Source: Leisingera aquaemixtae (lineage in GTDB: Bacteria > Pseudomonadota > Alphaproteobacteria > Rhodobacterales > Rhodobacteraceae). From it: DNA of 64,000 nucleotides. Within the stretch, counting starts at the first letter, position 1. Each line of letters opens with the position of its first letter. The position numbers were made by a program, and so were the translations under genes. Location of the stretch: positions 124,001-188,000 of the forward strand of contig NZ_CYSR01000022.1 of assembly GCF_001458395.1 (NCBI RefSeq), given 5' to 3'. The notes under the pieces are model-generated. The model made no database searches and had not been told where the DNA came from. It saw nothing but the letters and a program-made list of their open reading frames with translations. Of the stretch, positions 30,137 through 57,809 are shown one piece after another.

Positions 30137-30304
30137 CGGGCTGGGCCATCCGTCAAGGACCGTTGGCGCCGCGCCGGGGCAGAGTACGAAATTCAGCCCG
30201 ATTGCCCGGCGGCTTGATCAATTTCGTCACCCTCGGGCCGGAATAATATGCGTCAAGCCGGATGCGGCGGCCTAAAGTCGCCTCAAACAGCTTGGAGAGC
30301 GCCT

Positions 30305-31450
30305 ATGACCAGCTTTCAGAACCGCCTGACAGCGCTGCGCCGGGACTTTCACCGGCACCCGGAGCTTGGCTTCCGGGAAGACCGCACCAAGGCCAGGGTG
30401 GCGGCGCATCTGCGCGCCCTGGGGCTGGAGGTGCATGAGGGCGCGGGCGTGGTCGGGCTGCTGCGGGCCGGCACCGGCAACCGCGCCATCGGGCTGCGCG
30501 CCGATATGGATGCGCTGCCGATCAGCGAAACCTCTGCCCATGACTACGTTTCCGAAACGCCGGGCGTCATGCACGCCTGCGGCCATGACGGCCACATGGC
30601 GATGCTCTTGGGGGCCGCCGAGCGGCTGGCGCAGGAGCAGGGGTTTGACGGCACCGTGGTGTTCCTGTTCCAGCCGAACGAGGAACACGGCCTGGGCGCG
30701 CAGGCAATGATTGCCGAGGGCGTGCTGGAGCGGTTCCCGATCGAGGAGGTCTATGCCATCCACAATCTGCCGGGCGCGCCGGCGGGGCAGGTCTCGACCC
30801 GGACGGGCCAGATCTGCAGCAGCGAGAGCCTGTTTGAGATCGCGATCAAGGGGCAGGGCGGCCATGCCTCGATGCCGCAGGCGGGCGTGGACGCCATCAC
30901 CGTCGGCGCCGAAATGGTGCTGGCGCTGCAAACCATCGTCTCGCGAAAGCTGGCGCCGGGGGCGGGCGCGGTTGTTTCCGTCACCGAGTTTCTGACCGAC
31001 GGCCAGCGCAACGTGCTGCCGGGCCATGCGGTGCTGAAGGGCGACGTGCGCGCCCGGGTGCCGGAGGACCGCGCCGCGGTGGAACGCTTCATGCGCCAGA
31101 TCGCTGCCGGTGTGGCTGCCACCCACGGGGTGGAGGCGGAGGTGAGCTTTAACACCGAATTTGTGGAAACCATCAACGCCCAAGGCCCGGCAGAGGCCGT
31201 CTGTCGCGCCGCAGAGGCCGCGGGCTGCGCCGTGATCCGCAACCGCCCGCCGATGAGCTTCTCGGAGGATTTTGCCCATTTCGCCAACGCGGTGCCCGGC
31301 TGCTTCCTGCTCTTGGGCAATGGCGAGGACGGGCCGCACGGCCAGCCGCTCCATGCGGCGGACTATGATTTCAACGACGCTCTGCTGCCCATCGGCGCGG
31401 AGGTCTGGGTGCAGCTGGTGCGGGACCGGCTGCCAGCGGGAAAGGACTGA
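30305..31450 (+). CDS. M20 family amidohydrolase (N-acyl amino acid/hippurate hydrolase-like)
   Basis: 381-residue metal-dependent amidohydrolase of the M20D group. Metal and catalytic motifs are FHRHPELGFRE, RADMDALPISE, HACGHDGHMAMLLG and PNEEHGLGAQAMI. Cytoplasmic. ATG 30305 follows GGAGAGCGCC. First gene of a four-gene operon, two bp before the diaminopropionate ammonia-lyase. In this context it may release an amino acid such as 2,3-diaminopropionate from an N-acyl form; the substrate is inference. Confidence 0.88.
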   Translation: MTSFQNRLTALRRDFHRHPELGFREDRTKARVAAHLRALGLEVHEGAGVVGLLRAGTGNRAIGLRADMDALPISETSAHDYVSETPGVMHACGHDGHMAMLLGAAERLAQEQGFDGTVVFLFQPNEEHGLGAQAMIAEGVLERFPIEEVYAIHNLPGAPAGQVSTRTGQICSSESLFEIAIKGQGGHASMPQAGVDAITVGAEMVLALQTIVSRKLAPGAGAVVSVTEFLTDGQRNVLPGHAVLKGDVRARVPEDRAAVERFMRQIAAGVAATHGVEAEVSFNTEFVETINAQGPAEAVCRAAEAAGCAVIRNRPPMSFSEDFAHFANAVPGCFLLLGNGEDGPHGQPLHAADYDFNDALLPIGAEVWVQLVRDRLPAGKD

Positions 31451-31452
31451 CG

Positions 31453-32643
31453 ATGCTTGAACAATTTGCTGTTGCCCTGCGCCACACGGCAGGAAACCCG
31501 AAACCCGGCGAGGCGGCCTATAGCGTGCTGTCGGAACAGGATTTTGCCAAGGCTCAGGCAGAAATCACCGCCTGGGAGGGGTATGCGGCAACGCCGCTGG
31601 TGTCCCTGTCCGGGCTGGCGTCGGAGATCGGTGTTGCCCGGATCGACTACAAGCACGAAGGCCCGCGGTTCGGCCTGGGCAGCTTCAAGGCGCTGGGCGG
31701 GTCTTACGCGGCGCTGCGGGTGCTGCAGCGGGAGCTGAGCAAGCAGCTGGGCCAGGACGTCAGCCTGGAGGAAATCCGCAAGGGCGCCCACAAGGACGCC
31801 TGCGCCGGGATCACCCTGGTCTCTGCCACCGACGGCAACCACGGCCGCTCGCTGGCCTGGGGCTGCCAGCGGTTCGGCGCGCCCTGCCGGATCTACATCC
31901 ATGCCGAGGTCAGCGAGGGTCGCGCCGCGGCGATGCGCGATCTGGGCGCCGAGGTGATCCGGATCGACGGCGACTATGATGCCTCGGTCCTGCTGGCCAA
32001 GAATGAGGCGGAGGAAAACGGCTGGTTCGTGGTTTCCGACACGTCCTGGGAAGGCTACACCGAGCCGCCGCGCGACGTGATGGCCGGCTACAGCGTGATG
32101 ACCCGCGAGGCCTGCGGCGAGCTGGAGCAGCCCCCGACCCATGTGTTCCTGCAGGGCGGGGTTGGCGGGCTGGCGGCCTCGGTCGCGGCGGCGTTGCGGC
32201 AGTTTTACGGTGCGGCATCGCCGCGGGTGGTGATTGTCGAGCCGGAACTGGCGGCCTGCCTGTTCGACAGCGCCAAGGCTGGCAAGGCAACCAATTTCGC
32301 CATCAAGGAAGAAACCATCATGGCGGGCCTCTCCTGCGGCGAGCCGTCGGAAATGGCCTGGGAGATCCTGGCCGAAGAAGCCACCGATTTCGTGACCATT
32401 CCCGACAGCATCGTGGCCCCCGCAGTGCGGCTGCTGGCCAATGGCGAAACCGGCGATCCGGTGGTGGAGGCCGGCGAAAGCGCGGTGGCGGGGCTGGCGG
32501 CGCTGATCGCGGCGTGCAAGTCGCCTGAGATGAAGAAGACACTCGGTCTGGATGAAAGCGCCCGCGTGCTGCTGATCGGTTCCGAGGGGGTCACCGATCC
32601 GGCGATCTATGCCGCGATCATGGAAGGCAAGGACCATGTCTGA
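31453..32643 (+). CDS. dpaL: diaminopropionate ammonia-lyase
   Basis: Fold-type II PLP enzyme converting 2,3-diaminopropionate to pyruvate and two ammonia. 396 residues, close to the 398 of the E. coli enzyme. The PLP lysine is in FGLGSFKALGGSYA near residue 77, the Asn loop is in SATDGNHGRSLAWG, and the phosphate-binding loop is QGGVGGLAAS. It overlaps the next gene by 8 bp and follows the amidohydrolase by 2 bp. Threonine dehydratase is a less likely reading because the whole-length motifs follow the DpaL pattern. Confidence 0.9.
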   Translation: MLEQFAVALRHTAGNPKPGEAAYSVLSEQDFAKAQAEITAWEGYAATPLVSLSGLASEIGVARIDYKHEGPRFGLGSFKALGGSYAALRVLQRELSKQLGQDVSLEEIRKGAHKDACAGITLVSATDGNHGRSLAWGCQRFGAPCRIYIHAEVSEGRAAAMRDLGAEVIRIDGDYDASVLLAKNEAEENGWFVVSDTSWEGYTEPPRDVMAGYSVMTREACGELEQPPTHVFLQGGVGGLAASVAAALRQFYGAASPRVVIVEPELAACLFDSAKAGKATNFAIKEETIMAGLSCGEPSEMAWEILAEEATDFVTIPDSIVAPAVRLLANGETGDPVVEAGESAVAGLAALIAACKSPEMKKTLGLDESARVLLIGSEGVTDPAIYAAIMEGKDHV

Positions 32644-33802
32644 CGCGCCCGCCCGCGGGTTCCCGGACGAGGAGTTTGCAGCCCGTACCGAGAAAGCACA
32701 GGCGCTGATGGCGGCGCAGGGTCTGGACGGGCTGTTGCTGCTGACGGAGCCGGAAGTGCGCTATTTCAGCGGCTTCCACACCCTGTTCTGGCAAAGCCCG
32801 ACCCGGCCCTGGTTCCTGTTTGTGCCGCCCGCGGGCAAGCCCGTTGCCATCATCCCGGAGATCGGCGCCGACCTGATGCGCCGCACCTGGATCGAGGACA
32901 TCCGCACCTGGAGCGCGCCCGCGCCGCAGGATGACGGCCTCGGCCTGCTGACGGAGCTGCTGTCGCCGATTGCGGCCCGTGGCGGTTCCATCGGTCTGAT
33001 GAAAGGTCATGAGACCTCTCTGCGGATGCCGCTGGGCGATTATGAGCGGCTGATGGCGGGGCTGCCGGGACTGAAGGTGGCGGATGCCACGCCGCTGGTG
33101 CGCAGCCTGCGGATGGTGAAATCCGCCGCCGAGATCGAGAAGCTGCGCCATATCTGCGCCATCGGCTCCCGCACGTTTGCGCGGGTTCCTGAAATCGCTC
33201 ATGAAGGCCAGCCGTTTGAGGTTCTGTTCCGCGCCTTCCGCCGCGAGGCGCTGGCGCAGGGGGCGGACGATGTGCCCTATCTGGTCGGCGGCGCCGGTCA
33301 GGGCGGCTACAGCGACGTGATCTCGCCGCCGACCGGCCGGCCCTTGCAGGCGGGCGACATCGTGATGCTGGACACCGGCGCCACCTGGGACGGCTACTTC
33401 TGCGATTTCGACCGCAACTTTGCGATTGGCCGGGCCGATGACCTGTCGCGCCAAGCTTATGACGTGCTGTGGCGGGCAACCGAGGCCGGGATTGCCGCAG
33501 CCAAACCCGGTGCCACCTGCCGCGAGCTGTTCCAGGCGATGCAGTCCGTGATCGCCGAAATGGACGATCAGGGCGGCGACGTGGGGCGGCTGGGGCATGG
33601 GCTGGGGATGCAGCTGACCGAATGGCCCTCGCACGCCGCGTTTGACGGGACGGTGATCGAGGAAAACATGGTGCTGACGCTGGAGCCCTCGCTGAGCTAT
33701 GGCGATGGCCGTATCATGGTGCATGAGGAAAACATCGTGGTGCGGGCGGAGGGTGCTGAGCTGCTGACAACCCGCGCCGCCCCCGAGCTGCCGGTAATCT
33801 GA
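32636..33802 (+). CDS. M24 family metallopeptidase-like hydrolase (Xaa-Pro peptidase/ectoine hydrolase-like)
   Basis: 388-residue pita-bread fold enzyme with a creatinase-type N-domain. The five metal ligands are present: two aspartates in LDTGATWDGYFCDFDRNF, histidine in GHGLGMQLTEWP, glutamates in LTLEPSLSYG and MVHEENIVVR. The usual second histidine (HExP) is threonine (TEWP), so the enzyme may not be a standard aminopeptidase. Start at ATG 32636 overlaps dpaL by 8 bp. In ectoine catabolism an M24 enzyme of this type opens a cyclic amino acid, and a similar role is conceivable here. Confidence 0.85.
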   Translation: MSDAPARGFPDEEFAARTEKAQALMAAQGLDGLLLLTEPEVRYFSGFHTLFWQSPTRPWFLFVPPAGKPVAIIPEIGADLMRRTWIEDIRTWSAPAPQDDGLGLLTELLSPIAARGGSIGLMKGHETSLRMPLGDYERLMAGLPGLKVADATPLVRSLRMVKSAAEIEKLRHICAIGSRTFARVPEIAHEGQPFEVLFRAFRREALAQGADDVPYLVGGAGQGGYSDVISPPTGRPLQAGDIVMLDTGATWDGYFCDFDRNFAIGRADDLSRQAYDVLWRATEAGIAAAKPGATCRELFQAMQSVIAEMDDQGGDVGRLGHGLGMQLTEWPSHAAFDGTVIEENMVLTLEPSLSYGDGRIMVHEENIVVRAEGAELLTTRAAPELPVI

Positions 33803-33817
33803 AGGAGGCCTTGGGCC

Positions 33818-34576
33818 ATGAAACTGCCCTTTGACACGGATGCAGGCATCGGCACCCGCGCCACGCTGGGTGTGATCGTGCTGGAAACCGACGAGACGCT
33901 GGAGCCTGAGTTCGCCCGGATGATGGCGCAGGACGGCGTGGCGCTCTATCACAGCCGCATTCCGATGGTGCCCGAAGTCCGCCCGGAGACGCTGGCGCGG
34001 ATGCAGGCGGATCTGCCGGACTCTGCCCGGCTGTTTCCGTCCGCACCGGATTTCGACGTGATCGGCTATGGCTGCACGTCTGCGTCAACGGTGATCGGCT
34101 CGGCTAGGGTGGCAGCGGCGGTGCAGACCGTGCTGCCCCGGGCCAAGGTCACCGACCCGCTGGCGGCGATCATCGCCGCGGGCCGGGCGCTGGGCGCGGC
34201 GCGGCTGGGGTTTGTCACGCCTTATCTGCCGGAAGTCTCGGCGCAGATGCGGCAGAAGCTGGAGGAGGCGGGGTTCGAAATCGCCGGTTTCGGCTCGTTT
34301 GAGGAAATGGACGACCGGGTGGTGGCGCGGATCACCGAGGCGGCGATTGCCGCGGCGGCGCAGCAGGTGGCCAGCGCTGCGGACTGCGACGCCATCGTGA
34401 TCTCCTGCACCAACCTGCGCTGCCTGCGGGTGATCCCGCAGATCGAGGCAGCGGCCGGGGTGCCGGTGGTCTCCAGCAATCAGGCGCTGGCCTGGCACAT
34501 GCTGCGGCTGGCCGGGATCACGGACCCCCAGCCGCACTTTGGCAGGCTGTTCGCCCGGGGTCTGGCGGCCGGATAG
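33818..34576 (+). CDS. Asp/Glu racemase superfamily protein (maleate isomerase/EutA-like)
   Basis: 252-residue enzyme with the paired cysteines of the superfamily: GYGCTSASTVIG and IVISCTNLRCL. The N-terminal ATLGVIVLETDETLEPEF resembles maleate cis-trans isomerase and the EutA proteins of ectoine operons rather than true glutamate racemases. 15 bp after the M24 gene with GAAGGAGG upstream, last gene of the operon. The reaction is not known; racemisation or isomerisation of a pathway intermediate is the family expectation. Confidence 0.83.
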   Translation: MKLPFDTDAGIGTRATLGVIVLETDETLEPEFARMMAQDGVALYHSRIPMVPEVRPETLARMQADLPDSARLFPSAPDFDVIGYGCTSASTVIGSARVAAAVQTVLPRAKVTDPLAAIIAAGRALGAARLGFVTPYLPEVSAQMRQKLEEAGFEIAGFGSFEEMDDRVVARITEAAIAAAAQQVASAADCDAIVISCTNLRCLRVIPQIEAAAGVPVVSSNQALAWHMLRLAGITDPQPHFGRLFARGLAAG

Positions 34577-44969: not shown

Positions 44970-46490
44970 ATGGCCCGACGCGCCCGCGCATCCCGCGACA
45001 GAAACACCGCCCCCGCGGGCGCTCCGGCATCGCCCTTTATCCGGCGGAGCCTGCCGTTCTTTGACGTGCTGGACGAGGAGAAGCTGGCCCGGCTGGAAGC
45101 CCAGGTTGACTGGATCTTCGAGGAGGTCGGCATTGCCTTCCGCGACGACCCGGAAGCGCTCAGGATCTGGAGAGAAGCGGGCGCCAGGATCGACGGCGAC
45201 ACGATCCGCGCGGATGCGCAGTGGATCCGCTCCCTGTGTGCCAAGGCGCCGCGGCAGTTCACCCAGCTGGCCCGCAACCCGGCGCGGTCCGTCACCATTG
45301 GCGGCACCAATCAGGTGTTTGCGCCGATCTATGGCGCGCCGTTTGTGCGCGATCTGGAGGGCGGGCGGCGCTATGGCGATATGGCGAGCTTCGAGAAGCT
45401 GGTGAAGCTCACCTATATGCATCCGAACCTGCATCACGGCGGGTTTGTGATCTGCGAACCCTGCAACGTGCCGGTGAGCAAGCGCCATTTCGACATGCTG
45501 TTTGCTCATATGACGCTGAGCGACAAACCGCATCTGGGTGCGATCACTGAGATGTCCCGGGCGCAGGACAGCGTCGACATGGCGGAGATCGTCTTTGGCA
45601 AGGACGTCATGGACGAAAACTGCGTGATCATGGGCAATGTGAACACCAATTCGCCGCTTTTGGTAGACAAGGTGGTGACCGAGGCGGTGCGCACCTATTG
45701 CGCCCGAGGGCAGGGAATTATCGTTGTGCCGTTTATCCTTACGGGCGCGATGGGGCCGGTCTCCACCGCCGCCTCAGTCGCGCAGGCGATGGCAGAGGCG
45801 ATGATGGTCTGCGCCTTTACCCAGATCGTCCGGCCCGGCGCGCCGTTTGTGCTGGGCAACTTCCTGTCGTCGATGTCGCTGAAATCCGGCGCGCCGACAT
45901 TTGGGATGCCGGAGCCGGTGGTCTCCAACTACGCCATCGGCCAACTGGCGCGCCGGGCCGGGCTGCCGTTGCGCTGCGGCGGGTCGCTGACGGCCTCCAA
46001 GATCGAGGACGCGCAGGCGGCTTACGAGAGTGCAGACTCGATGCATTCCACCATGCTGGCCGGCGCCAATTATGTGCTGCATTCGGCGGGCTGGCTGGAA
46101 GGCGGTCTGTGCACCGGGTTCGAGAAGCTGATCATGGATGCGGACCGGCTGGGGTCCTACCAGAAGGTGCTGAGCCAGGGGCTGGACACCAGCGACGAGG
46201 CGATGGCGCGCGATGCCTACGCCGAGGTGGCGCCGGGCGGGCATTTCCTGGGGTCCGGGCACACTATGCGCAACTACCAGACGGCCTTCTACGAACCGAA
46301 GCTCAGCGACAGCGAGAATGTCGAAAGCTGGGAAGAGGGCGGTTCCAAGGACATGCGCCAGCGCGCCTATGACCGCTGGAACCAGATGCTGGACCAGTAC
46401 GAGGCGCCGCCGATGGACGAGGCGGTGAAAGAGGAACTGGCCGCCTATGTCGCCCGCCGCAAAGAGGAGATCCCGGATGCGTGGTACTGA
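44970..46490 (+). CDS. MttB-family corrinoid methyltransferase homologue without pyrrolysine
   Basis: 506-residue member of the trimethylamine methyltransferase (MttB/COG5598) family. The full frame is open with no internal amber codon, so it is a non-pyrrolysine member like the glycine betaine methyltransferases. Motifs include FVRDLEGGRRYGDMASFEKLVKL and GFVICEPCNVPVSKRHFDML. No corrinoid protein or methyl-acceptor enzyme is next to it; instead a DMGDH-like flavoprotein follows after 152 bp. Substrate probably a quaternary amine or betaine. Possibly induced through the divergent LysR. Confidence 0.87.
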   Translation: MARRARASRDRNTAPAGAPASPFIRRSLPFFDVLDEEKLARLEAQVDWIFEEVGIAFRDDPEALRIWREAGARIDGDTIRADAQWIRSLCAKAPRQFTQLARNPARSVTIGGTNQVFAPIYGAPFVRDLEGGRRYGDMASFEKLVKLTYMHPNLHHGGFVICEPCNVPVSKRHFDMLFAHMTLSDKPHLGAITEMSRAQDSVDMAEIVFGKDVMDENCVIMGNVNTNSPLLVDKVVTEAVRTYCARGQGIIVVPFILTGAMGPVSTAASVAQAMAEAMMVCAFTQIVRPGAPFVLGNFLSSMSLKSGAPTFGMPEPVVSNYAIGQLARRAGLPLRCGGSLTASKIEDAQAAYESADSMHSTMLAGANYVLHSAGWLEGGLCTGFEKLIMDADRLGSYQKVLSQGLDTSDEAMARDAYAEVAPGGHFLGSGHTMRNYQTAFYEPKLSDSENVESWEEGGSKDMRQRAYDRWNQMLDQYEAPPMDEAVKEELAAYVARRKEEIPDAWY

Positions 46491-46642: not shown

Positions 46643-49117
46643 ATGTCAGACAATTTTGCTCAATCGACGCTCAACATCCACAAGGAGGAGAGCACCGGCG
46701 ACAAGAAGCTGCCGAGCCACGCCAAGGCGGTGATCATCGGCGGCGGTGTGGTTGGCTGCTCGATCCTGTTCCACCTGGCCAAGTTCGGCTGGAAGGACGT
46801 GGTGCTGCTGGAACGTGACGAGCTGACCTCCGGCTCCTCCTGGCACGCGGCGGGGCAGATCCATACCATCAGCTCGGACCCGAACATCTCGCGCCTGCAA
46901 TCCTACACCATTGATCTGTACAAGGAGATCGAGGAGACCTCGGGCCATTCCGTGGGTTTGCACATCACCGGCGGGTTTTATCTGGCGTCGAACAAGACCT
47001 GGTATGACTACCTCAAGCGGGAGCGGTCCAAGGCGCGTTACATGGGCCTTAACCAGGAGTTCATCAGCCCCAAGGAAGTGGCCGAGCGCCATCCGCTGAT
47101 TGATCCGAAACACTACCACGCGGCGCTTTGGGATGATCAGGATGGCGATCTGGACCCCTCAGGCGCGACCTATGCATTCGCCAAGTCGGCCAAGGTGCAT
47201 GGGGCGCAGTATTTTACCCACACGCCGGTGACTGCGACCACCCAGCGCGCCGACGGCAGCTGGGATGTGACCACGCCGCGCGGGGTGATCAATGCCGAGC
47301 ATATCGTGAACTGCGGCGGCCTGTGGGCGCGTGAGGTCGGCCACATGCAGGGCGTCAACCTGCCGGTGCAGCCGATGGAGCACCATTACCTGATCACCGA
47401 CAAGATCGATGCGGTGGCCAACCACCCGACCCGCCTGCCGGCCGGGATCGACTATGAGGCGAACATCTATTTCCGGCAGGAGCGGCAGGGGATGCTCTTG
47501 GGCACCTATGAGCCGAAGGGCACGCCCTGGAAGGTGGGCGGCACGCCGTGGGATTTCGGGCATGAGCTGCTGCAGCCGGATCTGGACCGGATTGCCGACC
47601 GTCTGGAGATGTCGTTTGAGCGCATCCCGGCCATCGGTGAGGCGGGCATCAAGGATATGATCAACGGGCCGTTCACATTCGGCCCCGATGGCAACCCGAT
47701 GATCGGGCCGGTGCCGGGCATGAAGAACTATTGGTGTGCGGTGGGCGTCATGGCGGGCTTCTGCCAAGGCGGCGGCGTGGGCCTGACTATGGCGGAGTGG
47801 ATGATCGACGGCGAGCCGTCCATCGACGTCTGGGCGATGGACGTGGCGCGGTTTGGCGAGTTTGCGACGCCCGACTGGGGTACCGTGAAATCGACCGAGA
47901 ACTATGAGCGCCGGTTTGTGATGACCTTCCCGAACGAGACGCTGCCGAAGGGGCGGATGCAGAAGACGACTGCTCTGTACGACCGGCTGGTCGCCAAGGG
48001 TGCGCGGATGGGGCAGGGGTTTGGCTTGGAGAACGCGCTGTGGTTTGCCGACGGGCCGGAGGATGCGCATGAGGAGCCGACATTCGAGCGCAACCGCTCG
48101 CATGATTACGTTGCGCGCGAGGTGAAGGCGGTGCGCGAGGCCGTGGGCGGCATCGAGGTTGCCAACTTTGCCAAGCATGAGTTCAAGGGCGCAGGCGCGC
48201 GGGCCTATCTGGACCGGGTGCTGGCGGGGTATGTGCCGAAACCGGGCCGCCTGACGCTGACGCCGATGCTGACGCCGAAGGGCAAGCTTTATGGCGATCT
48301 GACCGTGGCCTGCCTGGGTGAGGAGCATTTCATGCTGTTCGGCTCCGGCGCCATGCAGGAGGCGCACCGCCGCTGGTTCGAGAAGGATCTGCCCGAGGAT
48401 GTGTCCTATCAGAACGTCTCCGACGACTGGCACGGCATCGCGCTGTCGGGTCCGAAATCGCGGCAGCTGCTGCAGCGGATCACCCGCGAGGATGTCTCTG
48501 CCGAGGCGTTCAAGTTCCGCGACCTGCGCCAGACTTTCGTGGGCGGGGTGCCGGTGATCCTGAACCGGATCAGCTTCTCCGGCGAGCTGGGCTATGAGAT
48601 CTACTGCAAGCCGCAGTACCTGCTGCGCCTGGCGGAATCGGTGGAGGAGGCGGGCGCGGATCTGGGCTACCGCTGGTACGGGGCGCGGGCGCTGATGTCG
48701 ATGCGGCTGGAGAAGGGCTGGGGCGTGTGGACGCTGGATTTCCGCCCGGATTTCGACGCGGCGGAAAGCGGCATGGAGGCCTTCATCAACTGGAAGAAGG
48801 ATTTCGTGGGCAAGGCCGCTGCGCTGAAGGCCCGCGAGGCCGGGCCGAGCCGCAAGCTGGTCACCATGACCATCGGTGTGGACGGCATTGATGTGTCGGG
48901 CGACGAGGCGATCCTGAAGGATGGCGCGGCGGTGGGCTACATCTCCTCCGGCGGCTATGCGCATCACGCACAGGCGTCGATGGCGATGGGTTATGTCTCG
49001 GCAGAGCACGCCGCGGCCGGCACCAGGCTGCAGGTCGAGATCCTGGGCGAGATGTACGACGCCGAGGTGCTGGGCGCGCCGGTCTACGACGCCAATGGCG
49101 CCAATATGCGCGCCTGA
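46643..49117 (+). CDS. dimethylglycine/sarcosine dehydrogenase-like FAD and GcvT-domain oxidoreductase
   Basis: 824-residue two-domain enzyme. The N-terminal FAD amine-oxidase domain starts AVIIGGGVVGCSILFHLAKFGW, with the flavin-linkage region SGSSWHAAGQIHTISSD. From about residue 430 come the central domain and the C-terminal GcvT aminomethyl-folate fold (GIALSGPKSRQLLQRITRED, SFSGELGYEIYCKP, YRWYGARALMSMRLEKGW). It oxidises an N-methyl group and passes C1 to tetrahydrofolate. ATG 46643 has GAGGACAAATCC before it. Together with the MttB-type gene it suggests stepwise demethylation of a betaine. Cytoplasmic. Confidence 0.9.
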   Translation: MSDNFAQSTLNIHKEESTGDKKLPSHAKAVIIGGGVVGCSILFHLAKFGWKDVVLLERDELTSGSSWHAAGQIHTISSDPNISRLQSYTIDLYKEIEETSGHSVGLHITGGFYLASNKTWYDYLKRERSKARYMGLNQEFISPKEVAERHPLIDPKHYHAALWDDQDGDLDPSGATYAFAKSAKVHGAQYFTHTPVTATTQRADGSWDVTTPRGVINAEHIVNCGGLWAREVGHMQGVNLPVQPMEHHYLITDKIDAVANHPTRLPAGIDYEANIYFRQERQGMLLGTYEPKGTPWKVGGTPWDFGHELLQPDLDRIADRLEMSFERIPAIGEAGIKDMINGPFTFGPDGNPMIGPVPGMKNYWCAVGVMAGFCQGGGVGLTMAEWMIDGEPSIDVWAMDVARFGEFATPDWGTVKSTENYERRFVMTFPNETLPKGRMQKTTALYDRLVAKGARMGQGFGLENALWFADGPEDAHEEPTFERNRSHDYVAREVKAVREAVGGIEVANFAKHEFKGAGARAYLDRVLAGYVPKPGRLTLTPMLTPKGKLYGDLTVACLGEEHFMLFGSGAMQEAHRRWFEKDLPEDVSYQNVSDDWHGIALSGPKSRQLLQRITREDVSAEAFKFRDLRQTFVGGVPVILNRISFSGELGYEIYCKPQYLLRLAESVEEAGADLGYRWYGARALMSMRLEKGWGVWTLDFRPDFDAAESGMEAFINWKKDFVGKAAALKAREAGPSRKLVTMTIGVDGIDVSGDEAILKDGAAVGYISSGGYAHHAQASMAMGYVSAEHAAAGTRLQVEILGEMYDAEVLGAPVYDANGANMRA

Positions 49118-51560: not shown

Positions 51561-52514
51561 ATGACCCCATTTTCCATCGCGGGCATCCAAATGCACGTGG
51601 ACGCGCTGCATTCGAATGTCGACGCAATGATACACCGGATCGACGTGCTGATGGCGCGCTTTCCCTGGACGCAGATGGCCGTGTTCAGCGAACTGGCGCC
51701 CTACGGGCCGCTGACCAAATATGCGCAGCCGCTGCACAATGAGGCGATTGAGCGGTTTTGCGCCGCGGCGGTGAAACACGGGATCTGGGTGGTGCCCGGG
51801 TCGATGTTCGAGATCACGGACGCCGGCAAGATCTACAACACCTCCTCGGTGATCAATCCGCAGGGCGAGGTGGTGGCGGTCTACCGCAAGATGTTCCCGT
51901 TCCGCCCGTATGAGCAAGGCGTGGAAGCGGGCACGGATTTCTGCGTGTTCGACATTCCCGACGTGGGCCGGTTCGGCCTGTCGATCTGCTATGACATCTG
52001 GTTCCCGGAAACCACCCGCCAGCTGACCAGCCAGGGGGTCGAGGTGCTGCTGCATCCGGTGCTGACCGGGACGGCGGACCGGGATGCCGAACTGTCCATC
52101 GCCCGGGCCACAGCGGCGCAGTTCCAGTGTTTTGTCGTCGATGTGAACGGGCTGGGCGCCGGGGGCGTGGGGCAGTCCTGCATCATTGATCCGTCGGCCA
52201 CGGTGCTGCACCAGTCGGGCCGCCATGAGGACATGTTCCCGCTGGAGCTGGATCTTGACCAGGTGCGCCGCCAGCGCGAGGTCGGCCTGAAGGGGCTGGG
52301 CCAGGTGCTGAAAAGCTTCCGCGACCGGGAGGCGGATTTCCCGGTATACGACCGCACCAGCGGGGCGGATGCTTACCTGCATACGCTGGGGCCGCTGGAG
52401 ATTCCGGTGCAGGGCTCGCAGGCGGGCCTGAATGCCCGCGCGCCGGGCGACGGCGCAAACGGGTTTGCCGAATTGCATTCGATACACTACGCTGAAAGAA
52501 AAGCAGGCGGTTGA
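51561..52514 (+). CDS. nitrilase superfamily carbon-nitrogen hydrolase
   Basis: 317-residue cytoplasmic hydrolase. The catalytic triad is E44 (FSELAPYG), K110 (VYRKMFPFRPYE) and C143 (SICYDIWFPE). This is the amidase/N-carbamoyl amidase type rather than a true nitrilase, judging by the ICYD motif. About 50 C-terminal residues follow the fold (TSGADAYLHTLGPLEIPVQG). ATG 51561 is taken because conserved sequence begins at once. It precedes the decarboxylase-like gene by 66 bp on the same strand and may belong to that pathway. Confidence 0.88.
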   Translation: MTPFSIAGIQMHVDALHSNVDAMIHRIDVLMARFPWTQMAVFSELAPYGPLTKYAQPLHNEAIERFCAAAVKHGIWVVPGSMFEITDAGKIYNTSSVINPQGEVVAVYRKMFPFRPYEQGVEAGTDFCVFDIPDVGRFGLSICYDIWFPETTRQLTSQGVEVLLHPVLTGTADRDAELSIARATAAQFQCFVVDVNGLGAGGVGQSCIIDPSATVLHQSGRHEDMFPLELDLDQVRRQREVGLKGLGQVLKSFRDREADFPVYDRTSGADAYLHTLGPLEIPVQGSQAGLNARAPGDGANGFAELHSIHYAERKAGG

Positions 52515-52580: not shown

Positions 52581-55343
52581 ATGCAAGTAATGGGCGACTA
52601 TTACTCGGCGATCCAGCTGCGTCACGATCAGTGGACAACGCTGAGGGAAGTGACCGAAGCCCTGGCCAGTGCCCGAAAACCCAAACGTGAAGCAGCGCTC
52701 GTGACGAATGTCCGGGCGCTGTTTGATTTACTGGGTCCGATTGAGACCTATTGGGCCTTTCCCGGTGTGCAGGCCTTTGAGCAGATACGGCGCCAGTTCG
52801 AGCACGGCAATTACGCTGATGTGGCGTTTTCCGTCCAGCGCATCTGCCGGGCCTTGTCCACCGGCGCCTACCGGCGGCGGCATGTGCCGCTGGATCGCGA
52901 CTCGGCGGATGCGGACGAGCATGAGGACGAGGTCATCCAGCCGCCCGAGGCGCGGGCCTTGGCCAAGCCTTATTTCGAGGTGCTGGTGGTCGACAACGTC
53001 AACGAGCATCAGGAGCGCTGGCTGCACAGCAACTTCAAGAAGATGCGCCGCCCGGAAGATCCGTTCCATTATGAAACCGTGGTGGTGCCCAGCCTGCAGG
53101 ACGCGCTGATCGGGATCCTGTTCAACTATAACATTCAGGCGATTGTGGTGCGGCCGGGCCTCAAGTTCGACTCGAAGATGGAGATGTCGCTTCTGACCCG
53201 CTACCTGGACTGGGCCGGCGGCACCGAGGGCATCGAGGCGGTCCGTTCGCTTGACCATGGCCCGGCGCTGTGCCGGCTGGTGGCGAATGTCCGGCCGGAA
53301 CTGGATGCCTATCTGGTCACCGACCGCTCGGTCGAAGAGATCGCCGGCCATGATCTGGGGATCTGCCGCCGGGTCTTTTACAATCAGGAAGATTTCATGG
53401 AGCTGCACCTCAATATCTTGAGGGGGGTGCAGGCGCGCTACAAGACGCCGTTCTTCACGGCGCTGGTGGAGTATTCCAAACAGCCGACCGGCGTCTTTCA
53501 CGCAATGCCGATCAGCCGCGGCAAGTCGGTTTCGCGCAGCCACTGGATTCAGGACATGGGGGCGTTTTACGGCTCCAATATTTTCCTGGCCGAGACCTCT
53601 GCCACCTCCGGCGGGCTGGACAGCCTGCTGGAGCCGCACGGGCCCATCAAGCAGGCGCAGGAACAGGCCAGCCGCGCCTTCGGGTCGAAACAGACGTTCT
53701 TTGCCACCAACGGCACCTCCACCTGCAACAAGATCGTGGTGCAGGCGCTGGTGCGGCCCGGCGATATCGTGCTGGTGGACCGCGACTGCCACAAGTCGCA
53801 CCATTACGGGCTGGTGCTGGCGGGCGCGCAGGTGGTCTATCTCGACAGCTATCCGCTGAATGAATACTCGATGTATGGCGCGGTGCCGCTGCGGGAGGTC
53901 AAGCACATGCTGCTGCACCTCAAGGCGCAGGGCAAGCTGGACCGGGTGCGGATGCTGTTGCTGACCAACTGCACCTTTGACGGCATCGTCTACAACGTCG
54001 AGCGGGTGATGGAGGAATGCCTGGCGATCAAGCCGGACCTGATCTTCCTGTGGGACGAGGCCTGGTTCGCCTTTGCCCGGTTCAGCCCGCTGTACCGGCA
54101 GCGCACCGCGATGAACGCCGCCAATGTGCTGCGCGAGCGGCTGCGCAGCGACGCCCATGCCAGAGCCTGGGAGGAGCAGCAGAAGCAGCTGAAGGATGCC
54201 AGCGAGGAGGAGTGGCTGAACACCCGGCTGCTGCCGCCGCCCGACGCGCGGGTGCGGACCTATGCCACTCAGTCCACCCACAAGACGCTGACCTCGCTGC
54301 GGCAGGGGTCGATGATCCACGTGAATGACCAGGATTTCAAAGGCGAAGTGGAGGTGAGTTTCCACGAAGCCTACATGACCCATACCTCGACCTCGCCGAA
54401 TTACCAGATCATTGCCTCGCTGGACGTGGGGCGGCGGCAGGTGGAGCTGGAGGGGTTCGAATTCGTCCACCGGCAGGTGGAGGCGGCGATGGCGATGCGG
54501 CGGGCGATCATGACGCATCCGCGGCTGAGCAAGTATTTCAGGATCCTCACCGCCGCCGACATGATCCCAAGCAAGCACCGCGAAAGCGGGCTGGAAAGCT
54601 ATTACGATCCCGAGCGCGGCTGGTCGGATGTCTGGGACAGCCTGGTGCATGACGAGTTCGTGCTGGACCCGACCCGGGTGACGCTGGCGGTGGGCGGCAC
54701 CGGCTGGGACGGCGACACCTTCAAGACACAGATCCTGATGGACAAATACGGGATCCAGATCAACAAGACCTCGCGCAACACGGTGCTGTTCATGACCAAC
54801 ATCGGCACCACGCGGTCTTCGGTGGCCTATTTGATCGAGGTTCTGGTGGAAATTGCCACCGATCTGGACGAATTGCTGGATGATGCCTCGATGATGGAAA
54901 AGCGCGGCTTCGAGAAGCGGGTGTCGAACCTGATGCACGACCTGCCGCCGCTGCCCGACTTCAGCCGCTTTCACGACGCTTTCCGCTCTGCTCCGGAAAC
55001 GCCCGAGGGGGACATCCGCTCGGCGTTTTTCCTGAGCTATGAGGAAAACAATTGCGACTATCTGGAGCTGGACGGCTCGATCAAGGCGGCGATGGAAAGC
55101 GGCCAGGAGGTGGTCTCAGCCTCTTTCATCATCCCGTATCCGCCGGGATTTCCGATCCTGGTGCCGGGGCAGGTCGTAAGCCAGGAGATCCTGGCCTTCA
55201 TGCGGGCCTTGGACGTCAGCGAAATCCACGGCTACCGGGCCGACCTGGGGCTGCGCGTGTTCACCGAGGAGGCCCTGAAACAGCAGGCCAAGGCCAATCA
55301 GGCGCGGCTGAAGCTGAACGCCGCCCGGCACAAGATTTTCTGA
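52581..55343 (+). CDS. large PLP-dependent Orn/Lys/Arg decarboxylase-like protein
   Basis: 920 residues. A 300-residue N-terminal region of unusual composition is followed by the fold-type I core: ATNGTSTCNKIVVQA, VDRDCHKSHHYG, the PLP aspartate in LFLWDEAWFAF-like sequence near 492 and the PLP lysine K568 in QSTHKTLTSLRQGS. A C-terminal decarboxylase domain ends PYPPGFPILVPGQVVS. Family members decarboxylate basic amino acids, but size, N-terminal arm and the insert with many charged residues near 510-555 set it apart from biosynthetic ornithine decarboxylases (about 710-750). Start ATG 52581 follows GGGAGG. First of three genes spaced by 15 bp. Confidence 0.85.
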   Translation: MQVMGDYYSAIQLRHDQWTTLREVTEALASARKPKREAALVTNVRALFDLLGPIETYWAFPGVQAFEQIRRQFEHGNYADVAFSVQRICRALSTGAYRRRHVPLDRDSADADEHEDEVIQPPEARALAKPYFEVLVVDNVNEHQERWLHSNFKKMRRPEDPFHYETVVVPSLQDALIGILFNYNIQAIVVRPGLKFDSKMEMSLLTRYLDWAGGTEGIEAVRSLDHGPALCRLVANVRPELDAYLVTDRSVEEIAGHDLGICRRVFYNQEDFMELHLNILRGVQARYKTPFFTALVEYSKQPTGVFHAMPISRGKSVSRSHWIQDMGAFYGSNIFLAETSATSGGLDSLLEPHGPIKQAQEQASRAFGSKQTFFATNGTSTCNKIVVQALVRPGDIVLVDRDCHKSHHYGLVLAGAQVVYLDSYPLNEYSMYGAVPLREVKHMLLHLKAQGKLDRVRMLLLTNCTFDGIVYNVERVMEECLAIKPDLIFLWDEAWFAFARFSPLYRQRTAMNAANVLRERLRSDAHARAWEEQQKQLKDASEEEWLNTRLLPPPDARVRTYATQSTHKTLTSLRQGSMIHVNDQDFKGEVEVSFHEAYMTHTSTSPNYQIIASLDVGRRQVELEGFEFVHRQVEAAMAMRRAIMTHPRLSKYFRILTAADMIPSKHRESGLESYYDPERGWSDVWDSLVHDEFVLDPTRVTLAVGGTGWDGDTFKTQILMDKYGIQINKTSRNTVLFMTNIGTTRSSVAYLIEVLVEIATDLDELLDDASMMEKRGFEKRVSNLMHDLPPLPDFSRFHDAFRSAPETPEGDIRSAFFLSYEENNCDYLELDGSIKAAMESGQEVVSASFIIPYPPGFPILVPGQVVSQEILAFMRALDVSEIHGYRADLGLRVFTEEALKQQAKANQARLKLNAARHKIF

Positions 55344-55358
55344 AGGGAGAAATAAGGC

Positions 55359-56819
55359 ATGCCATCTGCAGCACTGAAAAATATCTCTGAAATACGCCGG
55401 CACTTTCACCGCAACGAAGACCCTGTGTATTTCGTCTCGGCAACCAATTTCAACCTGCTGGGGCTGGATGAATGGTGCAAGAATTTCAAATACATATGTT
55501 ACATTGACTGCTATGGCGGCAAGCACCCCAACGTGTTCTGCCCGTCCGAGCAGCCGCACGCCGAATTCCAGTCGATCGAGGATATCAACAACTACCTTCT
55601 GCAGCACAAGGAGGTGGTCGAATGGATCAAGGGGCGCGGCGGCAAGCCCAAGTTTGTGTTCCTGATGTTCGACGAGGAGACCGAGCGCCTGGCCAAGGAA
55701 CTGGGCGGCGAGGTCTGGTTCCCCAGCGCCAAGCTGCGCCAGAGCATGGACAGCAAGATCGAAACGGTCCGGATCGGCAACAAGGCAGGGGTGCCTTCGG
55801 TGCCGAACGTGCTGGCGGAGGTCAAGGATTACGAGGATCTGAAGAAGACCTGCGAAAAGGCGGGCATCGGCCATGACGTGGTGCTGCAGTCGGCCTTTGG
55901 CGACAGCGGCCACACCACCTTCTTCATCAATTCCGAGGCCGATTTCCGCCGCCACGAGCATGAGATCGTGGGCGAGGGCGAGATCAAGATCATGAAGCGG
56001 ATCGACTGCCGCGGCTCCGCCATCGAGGCCTGCGCGACCAGGGAGGGCACCATCGTCGGGCCGCTGATGACGGAACTGGTCGGCTTCAAGGAGCTGACCC
56101 CCTACCGCGGCGGCTGGTGCGGCAACGAGATTTTTTCGACCGCGTTTCCGCCCAAGACCCGCGAGCGGGCGCGCGAGCTGACCTTCAAGTTCGGCGAGCA
56201 GCTGCGCAAGGAAGGCTACCGCGGCTATTTCGAGCTGGATTTCCTGATCGACAAGAAGACCGGGGAGATCTGGCTGGGCGAATTGAACCCGCGCATCACC
56301 GGCGCGTCCTCGATGACCAACCACGCGGCCTTTGCCCATGCGGACGCGCCGCTGTTCCTGTTCCATCTGCTGGAGTTCTCCAAGAAGAAGTTCAAGCTGG
56401 ACGTGGCAGAGCTGAACGACCGCTGGGCCGATCCCAAGATGATCGACAGCTGGTCGCAGATGGTGATCAAGCACACGGATGATTCCGTCGATATCGCCAC
56501 GGAGGTGCCGGAGACCGGCATTTACCGCATGGCCGAGGACGGCACCGTCCAGTTCGACCGCTTCGACTATCACCGCCGTGCGGTCGAGAGCGAGCAGGAG
56601 GCGTTTTTCCTGCGCATCCTGCAGCCGGGCGATTACCGGTATGAAGGCGCCGATATCGGCATTCTGGTGACCCGCGGCCGGTCGATGACGCCGGGGTTCC
56701 AGCTGAATGACCGCGGCAAGCGCTGGATCGACGCCATCAAGAGCAATGTCAAAGCGCGGCCGCTGCCGATGCAGGAGGCAGGGCCGGTGGTGGCCGATCC
56801 TGCCTTCAAGATCATGTAG
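55359..56819 (+). CDS. ATP-grasp ligase (biotin-carboxylase-like)
   Basis: 486-residue ATP-grasp protein. The N-domain has NFNLLGLDEWCKNF. The nucleotide fold has VVLQSAFGDSGHTTFF (glycine-rich loop) and EIKIMKRIDC. The metal-binding LGELNPRITGASSMTNHAAFA is near residue 305. A C-terminal part of about 150 residues carries FFLRILQPGDYRYEGADIG. No biotin carboxylase partner subunits are nearby, so it is more likely an amide-forming ligase that joins a carboxylate to an amine. The amine could be the product of the decarboxylase encoded 15 bp upstream. Substrates not predictable. Confidence 0.82.
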   Translation: MPSAALKNISEIRRHFHRNEDPVYFVSATNFNLLGLDEWCKNFKYICYIDCYGGKHPNVFCPSEQPHAEFQSIEDINNYLLQHKEVVEWIKGRGGKPKFVFLMFDEETERLAKELGGEVWFPSAKLRQSMDSKIETVRIGNKAGVPSVPNVLAEVKDYEDLKKTCEKAGIGHDVVLQSAFGDSGHTTFFINSEADFRRHEHEIVGEGEIKIMKRIDCRGSAIEACATREGTIVGPLMTELVGFKELTPYRGGWCGNEIFSTAFPPKTRERARELTFKFGEQLRKEGYRGYFELDFLIDKKTGEIWLGELNPRITGASSMTNHAAFAHADAPLFLFHLLEFSKKKFKLDVAELNDRWADPKMIDSWSQMVIKHTDDSVDIATEVPETGIYRMAEDGTVQFDRFDYHRRAVESEQEAFFLRILQPGDYRYEGADIGILVTRGRSMTPGFQLNDRGKRWIDAIKSNVKARPLPMQEAGPVVADPAFKIM

Positions 56820-56834
56820 GCCTGCTGTGAGGGC

Positions 56835-57809
56835 ATGATCATCCGCTGGCGCGCCATCGACGAACCCCAGCCCGGTCCCAAGTGGGCCGGGCTGTTCCGG
56901 GAATTCTGGCCCGACTATCACAAATGGTGGGTCCGCGAAGGCCCGGAGGCGCGCCCCGGTTACCTGGACAGCGTCAACGCGCTGAAGCGGCATATGCCGG
57001 AGCTGCTGCCGCTTTATGAGGAGCTGTGCGGCCTGGCGGGCGGCGCGGATCATGCGGCGCGGTTTCTGAGCTTCTACTGCCCGCCGCCCTATCTGTCGGC
57101 CTGTTCCCAGGCGCTGTGGCCCGGGCCGGAGCCGGTTCTGGTGCGCAATTACGACTACAGCCCGCATGCCTTTGACGGGGTGGTGATGCGCACCGAATGG
57201 CTGGGCCGCGCGGTGCTGGGCACCAGCGACAGCCTGTGGGGGCTGGTGGACGGGATCAACGATGCCGGGCTGGCGGTGTCGCTGACCTTCGGCGGCCGCC
57301 GGGTGGTCGGCGAAGGCTTCGGCGTGCCGCTGATCCTGCGCTATGTGCTGCAGACCTGTGAAACCGCAGAGGAGGCCGGCGCGGCGCTGTCCCGTCTGCC
57401 GACGCATATGAGCTATAACGTCACCGTGGTCGACCGGGACCGCAAGTTCCTGACCGCCTTCATGGCGCCCGACCGCAAGGCGGTGCTGAAACATGTATCA
57501 GTCGCCACCAACCACCAGGAGAAAGTGGAGTGGGACAGCCATGCCCGCTTTACGGCGACTGTGGAGCGGGAGCGGTTTCTGCTGCAGCGGCTGACGCTGC
57601 ATGTGGAGTCGGAAGAGAAATTCATCGGCGCGTTTTTGAAGCCGCCGCTGTATTCCTCGGCTTTCAGCGAGGGTTTCGGCACGCTTTACACGGCGGTCTA
57701 CCGGCCCCGCAAGCTTGAGATGGAACTCCGCTGGCCGGGCAGTGTCTGGCATATGCCGCTGATGGCGTTTGACGAGCGCACCTTGGCCGTGCAGGTGCCG
57801 GTATTTTAG
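56835..57809 (+). CDS. C45 family Ntn-hydrolase/acyltransferase (AAT-like)
   Basis: 324-residue member of the acyl-CoA:6-aminopenicillanic acid acyltransferase/C45 group. The N-terminal nucleophile is probably C90 in YLSACSQALW, followed by VLVRNYDYSPHAFDG, the conserved arginine-asparagine-aspartate block, then GLVDGINDAGLAVSLTFGG. Residues 1-89 would be the propeptide or alpha part. Enzymes of this fold make or break amide bonds. Third gene of the decarboxylase-ligase-hydrolase unit, 15 bp after the ligase. No signal peptide. Confidence 0.82.
   Translation: MIIRWRAIDEPQPGPKWAGLFREFWPDYHKWWVREGPEARPGYLDSVNALKRHMPELLPLYEELCGLAGGADHAARFLSFYCPPPYLSACSQALWPGPEPVLVRNYDYSPHAFDGVVMRTEWLGRAVLGTSDSLWGLVDGINDAGLAVSLTFGGRRVVGEGFGVPLILRYVLQTCETAEEAGAALSRLPTHMSYNVTVVDRDRKFLTAFMAPDRKAVLKHVSVATNHQEKVEWDSHARFTATVERERFLLQRLTLHVESEEKFIGAFLKPPLYSSAFSEGFGTLYTAVYRPRKLEMELRWPGSVWHMPLMAFDERTLAVQVPVF

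What the first reader, a model, noticed from the sequence alone, without database searches (positions are those of the whole stretch)
52581..57809. Three-gene unit of Orn/Lys/Arg-decarboxylase-like, ATP-grasp and C45 Ntn-hydrolase proteins with no known product
The genes are spaced by exactly 15 bp at both joins, so they act together. A PLP enzyme that could make an amine, an ATP-grasp enzyme that could join it to an acid and an Ntn-hydrolase/acyltransferase that could trim or transfer the amide form a logical path to a small amide or peptide-like amine. I recognise each family but not this combination. The decarboxylase has a 300-residue N-terminal arm and lies outside the usual length range. 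Amide-bond formation is inference.
Basis: partly seen in the sequence, partly recalled or inferred. Interest (0 to 1): 0.72.

Follow-up and report, generated by a model that had tools for sequence, protein, structure and literature searches.

The report
Four-enzyme amide module, ectoine/GABA-linked
Four enzyme genes travel together through many bacteria and often sit inside or beside known gene clusters that break down ectoine, arginine or GABA, so they probably handle a small amide made from these nitrogen-rich compounds, but the compound itself is still unknown.

Summary
The three genes and both 15-bp gaps are real, but the unit has four genes: a CN-hydrolase (51561-52514) lies directly upstream. 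In an ATP-grasp-led sample, 10 of 10 relatives besides the window's genome also carry the decarboxylase and C45 genes nearby. The long decarboxylase is a full-length relative of Rv2531c, solved but of unknown activity. New here: in family f51, 39 of 40 ATP-grasp genes lie within 12 kb of the ectoine hydrolase gene doeA, and in 15 of 16 loci read the module abuts doeC/doeD. Among 80 mostly Rhodobacterales loci, 39 have a gabT-like and 42 a PuuR-like gene; three plasmid records have ATP-grasp and C45 in an arginine-catabolism cluster. The decarboxylase lacks the glutamate (LdcI Glu526) proposed to bind lysine, and a sister clade adjoins an aspartate-antiporter gene (7 of 7 loci read), so acidic substrates are favoured. 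Best reading: making and breaking amides of omega-amino acids. Product and substrates are not identified.

The parts
51561..52514 (+).
   Evidence: Pfam PF00795 112 bits; Glu44-Lys110-Cys143 present in 105 of 105 aligned sequences, window included; found in 78 of 80 loci
52581..55343 (+). PLP-dependent OKR-fold decarboxylase of the Rv2531c type, 920 aa
   Evidence: PF01276 259 bits; full-length match to PDB 9n0n/9n0o, 837 bits; PLP lysine K568 in STHK; N728 at the LdcI/LdcC Glu526 position in 120 of 120 locus sequences, R732 in 119 of 120 (Pro in L105)
55359..56819 (+). ATP-grasp enzyme, NF005096/PRK06524 family (labelled biotin carboxylase, probably an amide ligase)
   Evidence: NF005096 755 bits against cut-off 684; E-[LI]-N-P-R motif in 112 of 112; model only moderate, pLDDT 67.5
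56835..57809 (+). C45 Ntn-hydrolase/acyltransferase with predicted nucleophile Cys90
   Evidence: NF040521 182 bits against 85; model pLDDT 86.8, best fold match isopenicillin N acyltransferase 2x1c, E 1.1e-12; Cys90 invariant in 33 of 33; the motif [AGS]C[ST]Q found in 107 of 108 sequences

Best explanation
SHOWN: a conserved four-enzyme module (CN hydrolase, Rv2531c-type PLP decarboxylase, ATP-grasp, C45 Ntn hydrolase) that recurs in or beside clusters for ectoine, arginine and GABA catabolism. INFERRED: the decarboxylase acts on an acidic amino acid (Glu or Asp), not on Arg/Lys/Orn, and yields an omega-amino acid (GABA or beta-alanine). The ATP-grasp enzyme activates a carboxylate with ATP and joins it in an amide to an omega-amino acid or to an amine of the host pathway (GABA, DABA or similar). 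The C45 enzyme, through Cys90, breaks that amide or transfers its acyl group. The CN hydrolase removes a terminal amide or carbamoyl group. GabT/GabD or DoeD/DoeC then feed the product into central metabolism. The module is therefore an accessory amide-making and amide-breaking side path of omega-amino-acid nitrogen metabolism.
For: Ectoine: in family f51, 39 of 40 ATP-grasp genes lie within 12 kb of doeA, 38 of them at 3.9-4.5 kb. In 15 of 16 f51 loci read the order is ATP-grasp-C45-PLP-doeC-doeD, with the CN hydrolase before it in 13 and doeX upstream. GABA: gabT-like in 39 and PuuR-like in 42 of 80 loci; the two gabT proteins tested score 562.7 and 542.8 against cut-off 506.65 of TIGR00700. 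DABA is described as a GABA analogue in PMC5320631 (passages). Arginine: Shinella and Roseateles sp. XES5 records place ATP-grasp and C45 between an aldehyde dehydrogenase and a D-amino-acid dehydrogenase, in a cluster with agmatinase-family and 5-guanidino-2-oxopentanoate decarboxylase genes; Sinorhizobium sp. RAC02 has a similar cluster. Acidic substrate: LdcI Glu526, proposed as lysine-binding in PMC5607190 (passages), corresponds to Asn728. The column that is Asp575 in AdiA is Arg732 here (two chained alignments). A monophyletic sister clade adjoins aspT in 7 of 7 loci read (support 1.0), once with succinate-semialdehyde dehydrogenase and aminotransferase genes. C45 best matches isopenicillin N acyltransferase by fold, an enzyme that cleaves a delta-aminoadipoyl amide (recalled).
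Against: No enzyme of the module has a tested activity, and no substrate is shown. The window copy has no gabT, PuuR or doe gene beside it. E. coli AdiA, an arginine decarboxylase, also lacks the Glu (Thr571), so loss of Glu alone does not prove an acidic substrate; 6q6i, labelled arginine decarboxylase, keeps it. Rv2531c has Ile where this family has Arg732, and one relative (L105) has Pro. Four plasmid records with ATP-grasp have no adjacent decarboxylase. In f51, 94 of 133 genomes with doeA have no ATP-grasp match, so ectoine breakdown does not need the module. The distribution is patchy: C45 orthologues (61% identity or more) in 20 of 120 genomes of the window's family, own included. The ATP-grasp fold search does not separate carboxylases from ligases.
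Confidence: 0.36

Rival explanations
1. A protecting-group route for diamines, working like the Puu pathway. The decarboxylase makes a diamine (for example 1,3-diaminopropane from DABA, or putrescine or agmatine); the ATP-grasp enzyme caps one amine (as PuuA does); a class III aminotransferase and an aldehyde dehydrogenase oxidise the other end; C45 removes the cap (as PuuD does) to release GABA or beta-alanine.
For: PuuR-like regulator in 42 of 80 loci. A class III aminotransferase ORF directly after C45 in 18 of 80 (my count, L079 with a gabT-like one left out; 3 proteins tested, 2 of them from these 18, all PRK07483 above cut-off). doeC and doeD directly follow the module in f51. ATP-grasp and C45 stay paired even where the decarboxylase is not adjacent.
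Against: The Glu proposed to bind lysine is Asn and an Arg is present, which is unlike a diamine-forming enzyme, though AdiA lacks the Glu too. The sister clade adjoins an aspartate-antiporter gene. The one PuuR-like protein tested scores 152 against cut-off 211. The CN hydrolase has no clear step.
Confidence: 0.25
2. One reading: biosynthesis and export of a small amide or peptide-like amine (signal, siderophore-like or protective product).
For: ATP-grasp plus C45 is a plausible amide-making set. One Rhizobium plasmid copy sits beside nifHDKEN, and two copies near Nif11/radical-SAM RiPP genes.
Against: The recurring linked transporters are peptide-type ABC systems with substrate-binding protein and TAXI-TRAP, which are importers; no exporter recurred among the neighbours I annotated (not all were annotated). 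The recurring contexts are catabolic.
Confidence: 0.14
3. The ATP-grasp enzyme is a biotin-independent N-carboxylase (like PurK) that makes a carbamate, which the two amidases then process.
For: NCBI label biotin carboxylase. The fold search ranks biotin carboxylases and PurK among the top hits.
Against: No BC C-terminal domain in Pfam, no carrier or transferase gene among annotated neighbours. Motif ELNPR rather than the BC signature (recalled). An L-amino-acid ligase ranks third with the same E-value as rank 2.
Confidence: 0.08

Closest known systems
Rv2531c of Mycobacterium tuberculosis (PDB 9n0n, 9n0o, 9n0p)
   Same: Full-length match including the N-terminal arm, 837 bits; Asn at the LdcI Glu526 position
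   Different: Ile in place of Arg732. Activity of Rv2531c unknown according to PMC12910592 (passages); its cryo-EM paper was not held. Its gene neighbourhood was not examined here
OKR decarboxylases AdiA, LdcI and ODC
   Same: PF01276 domain and S-x-H-K PLP motif
   Different: 920 aa against 693-758 aa for the Adi, Ldc and ODC chains listed; the proposed substrate-side Glu526 of LdcI is Asn; aspT beside the sister clade
doe/eut ectoine-degradation cluster (Halomonas elongata, PMC3187862, passages)
   Same: In f51 the module lies inside or at the edge of this cluster
   Different: In H. elongata only doeX, doeC and doeD lie between the eutDE and eutBC homologues, so no insert; up to four extra enzymes here
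Puu putrescine pathway (recalled)
   Same: Amide ligase plus amide hydrolase, PuuR-like regulator, GABA transaminase nearby
   Different: ATP-grasp instead of the glutamine-synthetase-like PuuA, C45 instead of PuuD; a decarboxylase and a CN hydrolase added
Isopenicillin N acyltransferase (C45; PDB 2x1c)
   Same: Fold, family and predicted autoproteolytic Cys
   Different: 13-15% identity in the fold matches; bacterial metabolic context

Membership tests
OKR (Orn/Lys/Arg) decarboxylase fold | PF01276 domain and PLP lysine in S-x-H-K | tested here: met
   259 bits against cut-off 27; K568 in 119 of 120 locus sequences, the other reads X
OKR decarboxylase acting on a basic amino acid | Acidic side-chain-binding residue at LdcI Glu526 | tested here: not met
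   Asn728 in 120 of 120. Caveat: AdiA has Thr there, so this feature does not define all basic-substrate members
Rv2531c-type decarboxylase | Full-length similarity including the long N-terminal arm | tested here: met
   Query residues 14-913 aligned, 837 bits
Biotin carboxylase | Score over the NF005096/PRK06524 cut-off | tested here: met
   755 bits against 684; a family name is no proof of function
Biotin carboxylase | BC C-terminal domain and a linked carrier or transferase | tested here: not met
   Only a sub-threshold CPSase_L_D2 match; no such partner gene among the neighbours annotated (not all neighbour ORFs were annotated)
ATP-grasp amide ligase | Amide product from ATP, a carboxylate and an amine | not testable with these tools
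   Motif E-[LI]-N-P-R in 112 of 112; fold search undecided
C45 acyltransferase/hydrolase | Family score, Ntn fold and invariant nucleophile Cys | tested here: met
   182 against 85 bits; best fold match 2x1c; Cys90 invariant in 33 of 33; motif found in 107 of 108
CN hydrolase (nitrilase superfamily) | Glu-Lys-Cys triad | tested here: met
   E44, K110, C143 in 105 of 105; below every NCBIfam cut-off shown, so no named substrate
Ectoine-degradation cluster | Module adjacent to doe genes | tested here: not met
   Not met in the window (the best doeA relative of this genome, 64%, is on another contig, C20). Met in 15 of 16 f51 loci read
Puu pathway | Glutamine-synthetase-like PuuA and class I hydrolase PuuD | not tested
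   No search for puuA or puuD was run; only the analogy of functions is proposed

The most novel reading that the evidence does not exclude
A previously undescribed amide cycle is grafted into ectoine, arginine and GABA catabolism: an OKR-fold decarboxylase switched from basic to acidic amino acids supplies an omega-amino acid, an ATP-grasp ligase couples it, and a C45 Ntn hydrolase releases it. This would also indicate the chemistry of the orphan enzyme Rv2531c.
Probability: 0.25. Interest if true: 0.82.

Novelty: new variant of a known kind. Interest (0 to 1): 0.6.

Why it matters
Each enzyme family is known, but the four-gene combination turned up in none of the held-library searches aimed at it, which do not cover the whole literature. 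Finding it in the well-studied ectoine-degradation cluster in part of one family suggests that pathway has an unrecognised branch. The residue and neighbourhood evidence turns an orphan decarboxylase family that includes a solved structure of unknown activity into a testable question: does it act on Glu or Asp?

Tried and rejected
Rejected: ATP-grasp as an ordinary biotin carboxylase (no BC C-terminal domain, no partner among annotated neighbours). Rejected: 15-bp spacing as a conserved signal (it varies in relatives). Rejected: the N-terminal arm as an unusual fusion (shared with Rv2531c).

Undecided: whether the product is GABA or beta-alanine. The window genome gave no match to panD (TIGR00223) nor to the GadB family (TIGR01788), which leaves room for either. 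But the module is patchy: in a 398-genome phylum sample 4 genomes of the window's family, its own included, carry the ATP-grasp gene, and C45 orthologues at 61% identity or more occur in 20 of 120 genomes of that family, with 5 further genomes matching only at 39-48%; so it is not an essential beta-alanine source. The co-divergence test also rises with plain vertical descent and is weak on its own; before it I dropped short or duplicate loci (L081-L092, L118-L136, L151-L155) and matches under 80% coverage. The tree holds 36 sequences (L098 fell out as a fragment) and is midpoint-rooted. The 20 plasmid records with an adjacent decarboxylase are largely near-identical Rhizobium leguminosarum plasmids; 8 further Sinorhizobium records hold only fragments of the ATP-grasp gene. 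Family f51 is unnamed; I did not establish its identity. Outside the phylum only the 14 control genomes were searched for the ATP-grasp family: weak matches in 8, none over the cut-off. Literature searches without a useful result.
Full report
Observation. The three ORFs are at the stated coordinates on the + strand. Pfam and NCBIfam confirm an OKR decarboxylase domain, an ATP-grasp enzyme of family NF005096 and a C45 acyltransferase/hydrolase. Both gaps are 15 bp. A fourth gene, a CN hydrolase at 51561-52514, ends 66 bp upstream and belongs to the unit. The window lies in contig C22 of a 4.6-Mb genome that holds one copy of the decarboxylase.

Conservation. Tblastn finds the CN hydrolase in 78, ATP-grasp in 76 and C45 in 74 of these 80. 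Some of the misses are contig ends (L036, L039, L048); L007, L067 and L069 keep the decarboxylase without ATP-grasp in the stretch held. To avoid choosing by the decarboxylase, 398 genomes of the phylum were searched with the ATP-grasp protein: 11 have it, the window's own included. In all 10 others the decarboxylase and C45 lie nearby, in different gene orders; the CN hydrolase is present in 7 of 10. In plasmid records, 24 hold at least 80% of the ATP-grasp, and by my reading the decarboxylase is adjacent in 20, many of them near-identical Rhizobium leguminosarum plasmids. The four without are Shinella, Roseateles sp. XES5 (which has it about 550 kb away on the same plasmid), Sinorhizobium sp. 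RAC02 and Cupriavidus necator N-1; all four keep C45 beside the ATP-grasp and a CN hydrolase relative in the stretch read (cut at the edge in XES5, several kb away in Shinella and RAC02). In the window's own family, C45 orthologues of 61% identity or more occur in 20 of 120 genomes, so the module is patchy.

Ectoine context. In the family called f51, 40 of 151 genomes have the ATP-grasp gene and 133 of 151 have doeA. In 39 of the 40 the two lie on one contig 3.9-11.5 kb apart. Of 16 f51 loci read, 15 show ATP-grasp-C45-decarboxylase-doeC-doeD, with doeA-doeB-doeX before the module in 14 and the CN hydrolase between doeX and ATP-grasp in most, often with eutB and a MocR-type regulator. The CN hydrolase is missing in L112 and L137 (13 of 15 have it), and in L141 doeX lies further off and doeA outside the stretch. 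The sixteenth, L146, has a diverged ATP-grasp and C45 and no doe gene in the stretch. In Halomonas elongata the stretch between the eutDE and eutBC homologues holds only doeX, doeC and doeD (PMC3187862, passages), so the module is an accessory insert: 94 of the 133 doeA genomes have no ATP-grasp match.

Other contexts. In the 80 loci: a gabT-like gene in 39, a PuuR-like regulator in 42, a fused TRAP permease in 47 and its TAXI binding protein in 43, a universal stress protein in 28, an FMN glutamate-synthase-like gene in 22 (representatives tested). In 18 of 80 a class III aminotransferase ORF follows C45 directly (my count; 3 proteins tested, all PRK07483; that of L077 is elsewhere in its locus). 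In Shinella and Roseateles XES5 the ATP-grasp and C45 genes sit in an arginine-catabolism cluster; RAC02 has a similar one by BLAST. In Rhizobium leguminosarum they sit on plasmids with a peptide-type ABC importer, beside nif genes in one record and near RiPP genes in two. The window copy itself has none of these neighbours.

Decarboxylase. It matches Rv2531c over its full length (837 bits). A review says the activity of Rv2531c is unknown and that cryo-EM shows a tetramer-dimer change (PMC12910592, passages). LdcI Glu526 was proposed as a lysine-binding residue (PMC5607190, passages). The alignments and residue counts place it at Asn728; Asn is present in 120 of 120 locus sequences, some of which cover the same gene twice, and Arg732 in 119 of 120. 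The same column is Asp575 in AdiA, a charge reversal (two chained alignments). Against this, AdiA itself lacks the Glu, and Rv2531c lacks the Arg. A sister clade (support 1.0) at 47-50% identity adjoins aspT, an aspartate:alanine-type antiporter gene, in 7 of 7 loci read out of the 15 records H41-H55, on both sides in 4 of them. This points to an acidic amino acid; it is inference.

ATP-grasp, C45 and CN hydrolase. The C45 model is good (pLDDT 86.8) and closest to isopenicillin N acyltransferase. The ATP-grasp model is moderate (67.5), and its matches mix biotin carboxylases, PurK and an L-amino-acid ligase, so it does not decide between carboxylase and ligase. The CN hydrolase keeps its triad in 105 of 105 but passes no named NCBIfam cut-off.

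Conclusion. The association is strong; the chemistry is open. The best reading is an amide-making and amide-breaking side path of omega-amino-acid nitrogen metabolism (0.36), with a Puu-like diamine route next (0.25). The combination was not found in the searches made of the held library, which is not the whole literature.

Noticed in passing
window 30248-34576 (+): A second eut/doe-like cluster: DoeB2-like deacylase (329 bits, below cut-off 550), diaminopropionate ammonia-lyase-like enzyme (485 above 276), a protein 26% like DoeA, and an EutA-like protein (208 below 318); substrate unknown.
   Followed up: partly
L112 9035-10051 (-) and L137 8028-9038 (-): In two f51 loci the CN hydrolase is missing and an unidentified gene on the opposite strand takes its place.
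   Followed up: no
L156, L157, L159, L160: The Rv2531c-type decarboxylase is flanked on both sides by aspT antiporter genes, which looks like a decarboxylase-antiporter system; one literature search on it found no paper.
   Followed up: partly
window 44970-46490 and 46643-49117 (+): Trimethylamine methyltransferase-like gene (225 bits, below cut-off 525) followed by a long ORF that looks like a dimethylglycine/sarcosine dehydrogenase (name recalled; no NCBIfam match at E 1e-60).
   Followed up: no
L099: A decarboxylase relative on a Sinorhizobium meliloti plasmid lies among transposases and near an ectB-annotated transaminase.
   Followed up: no
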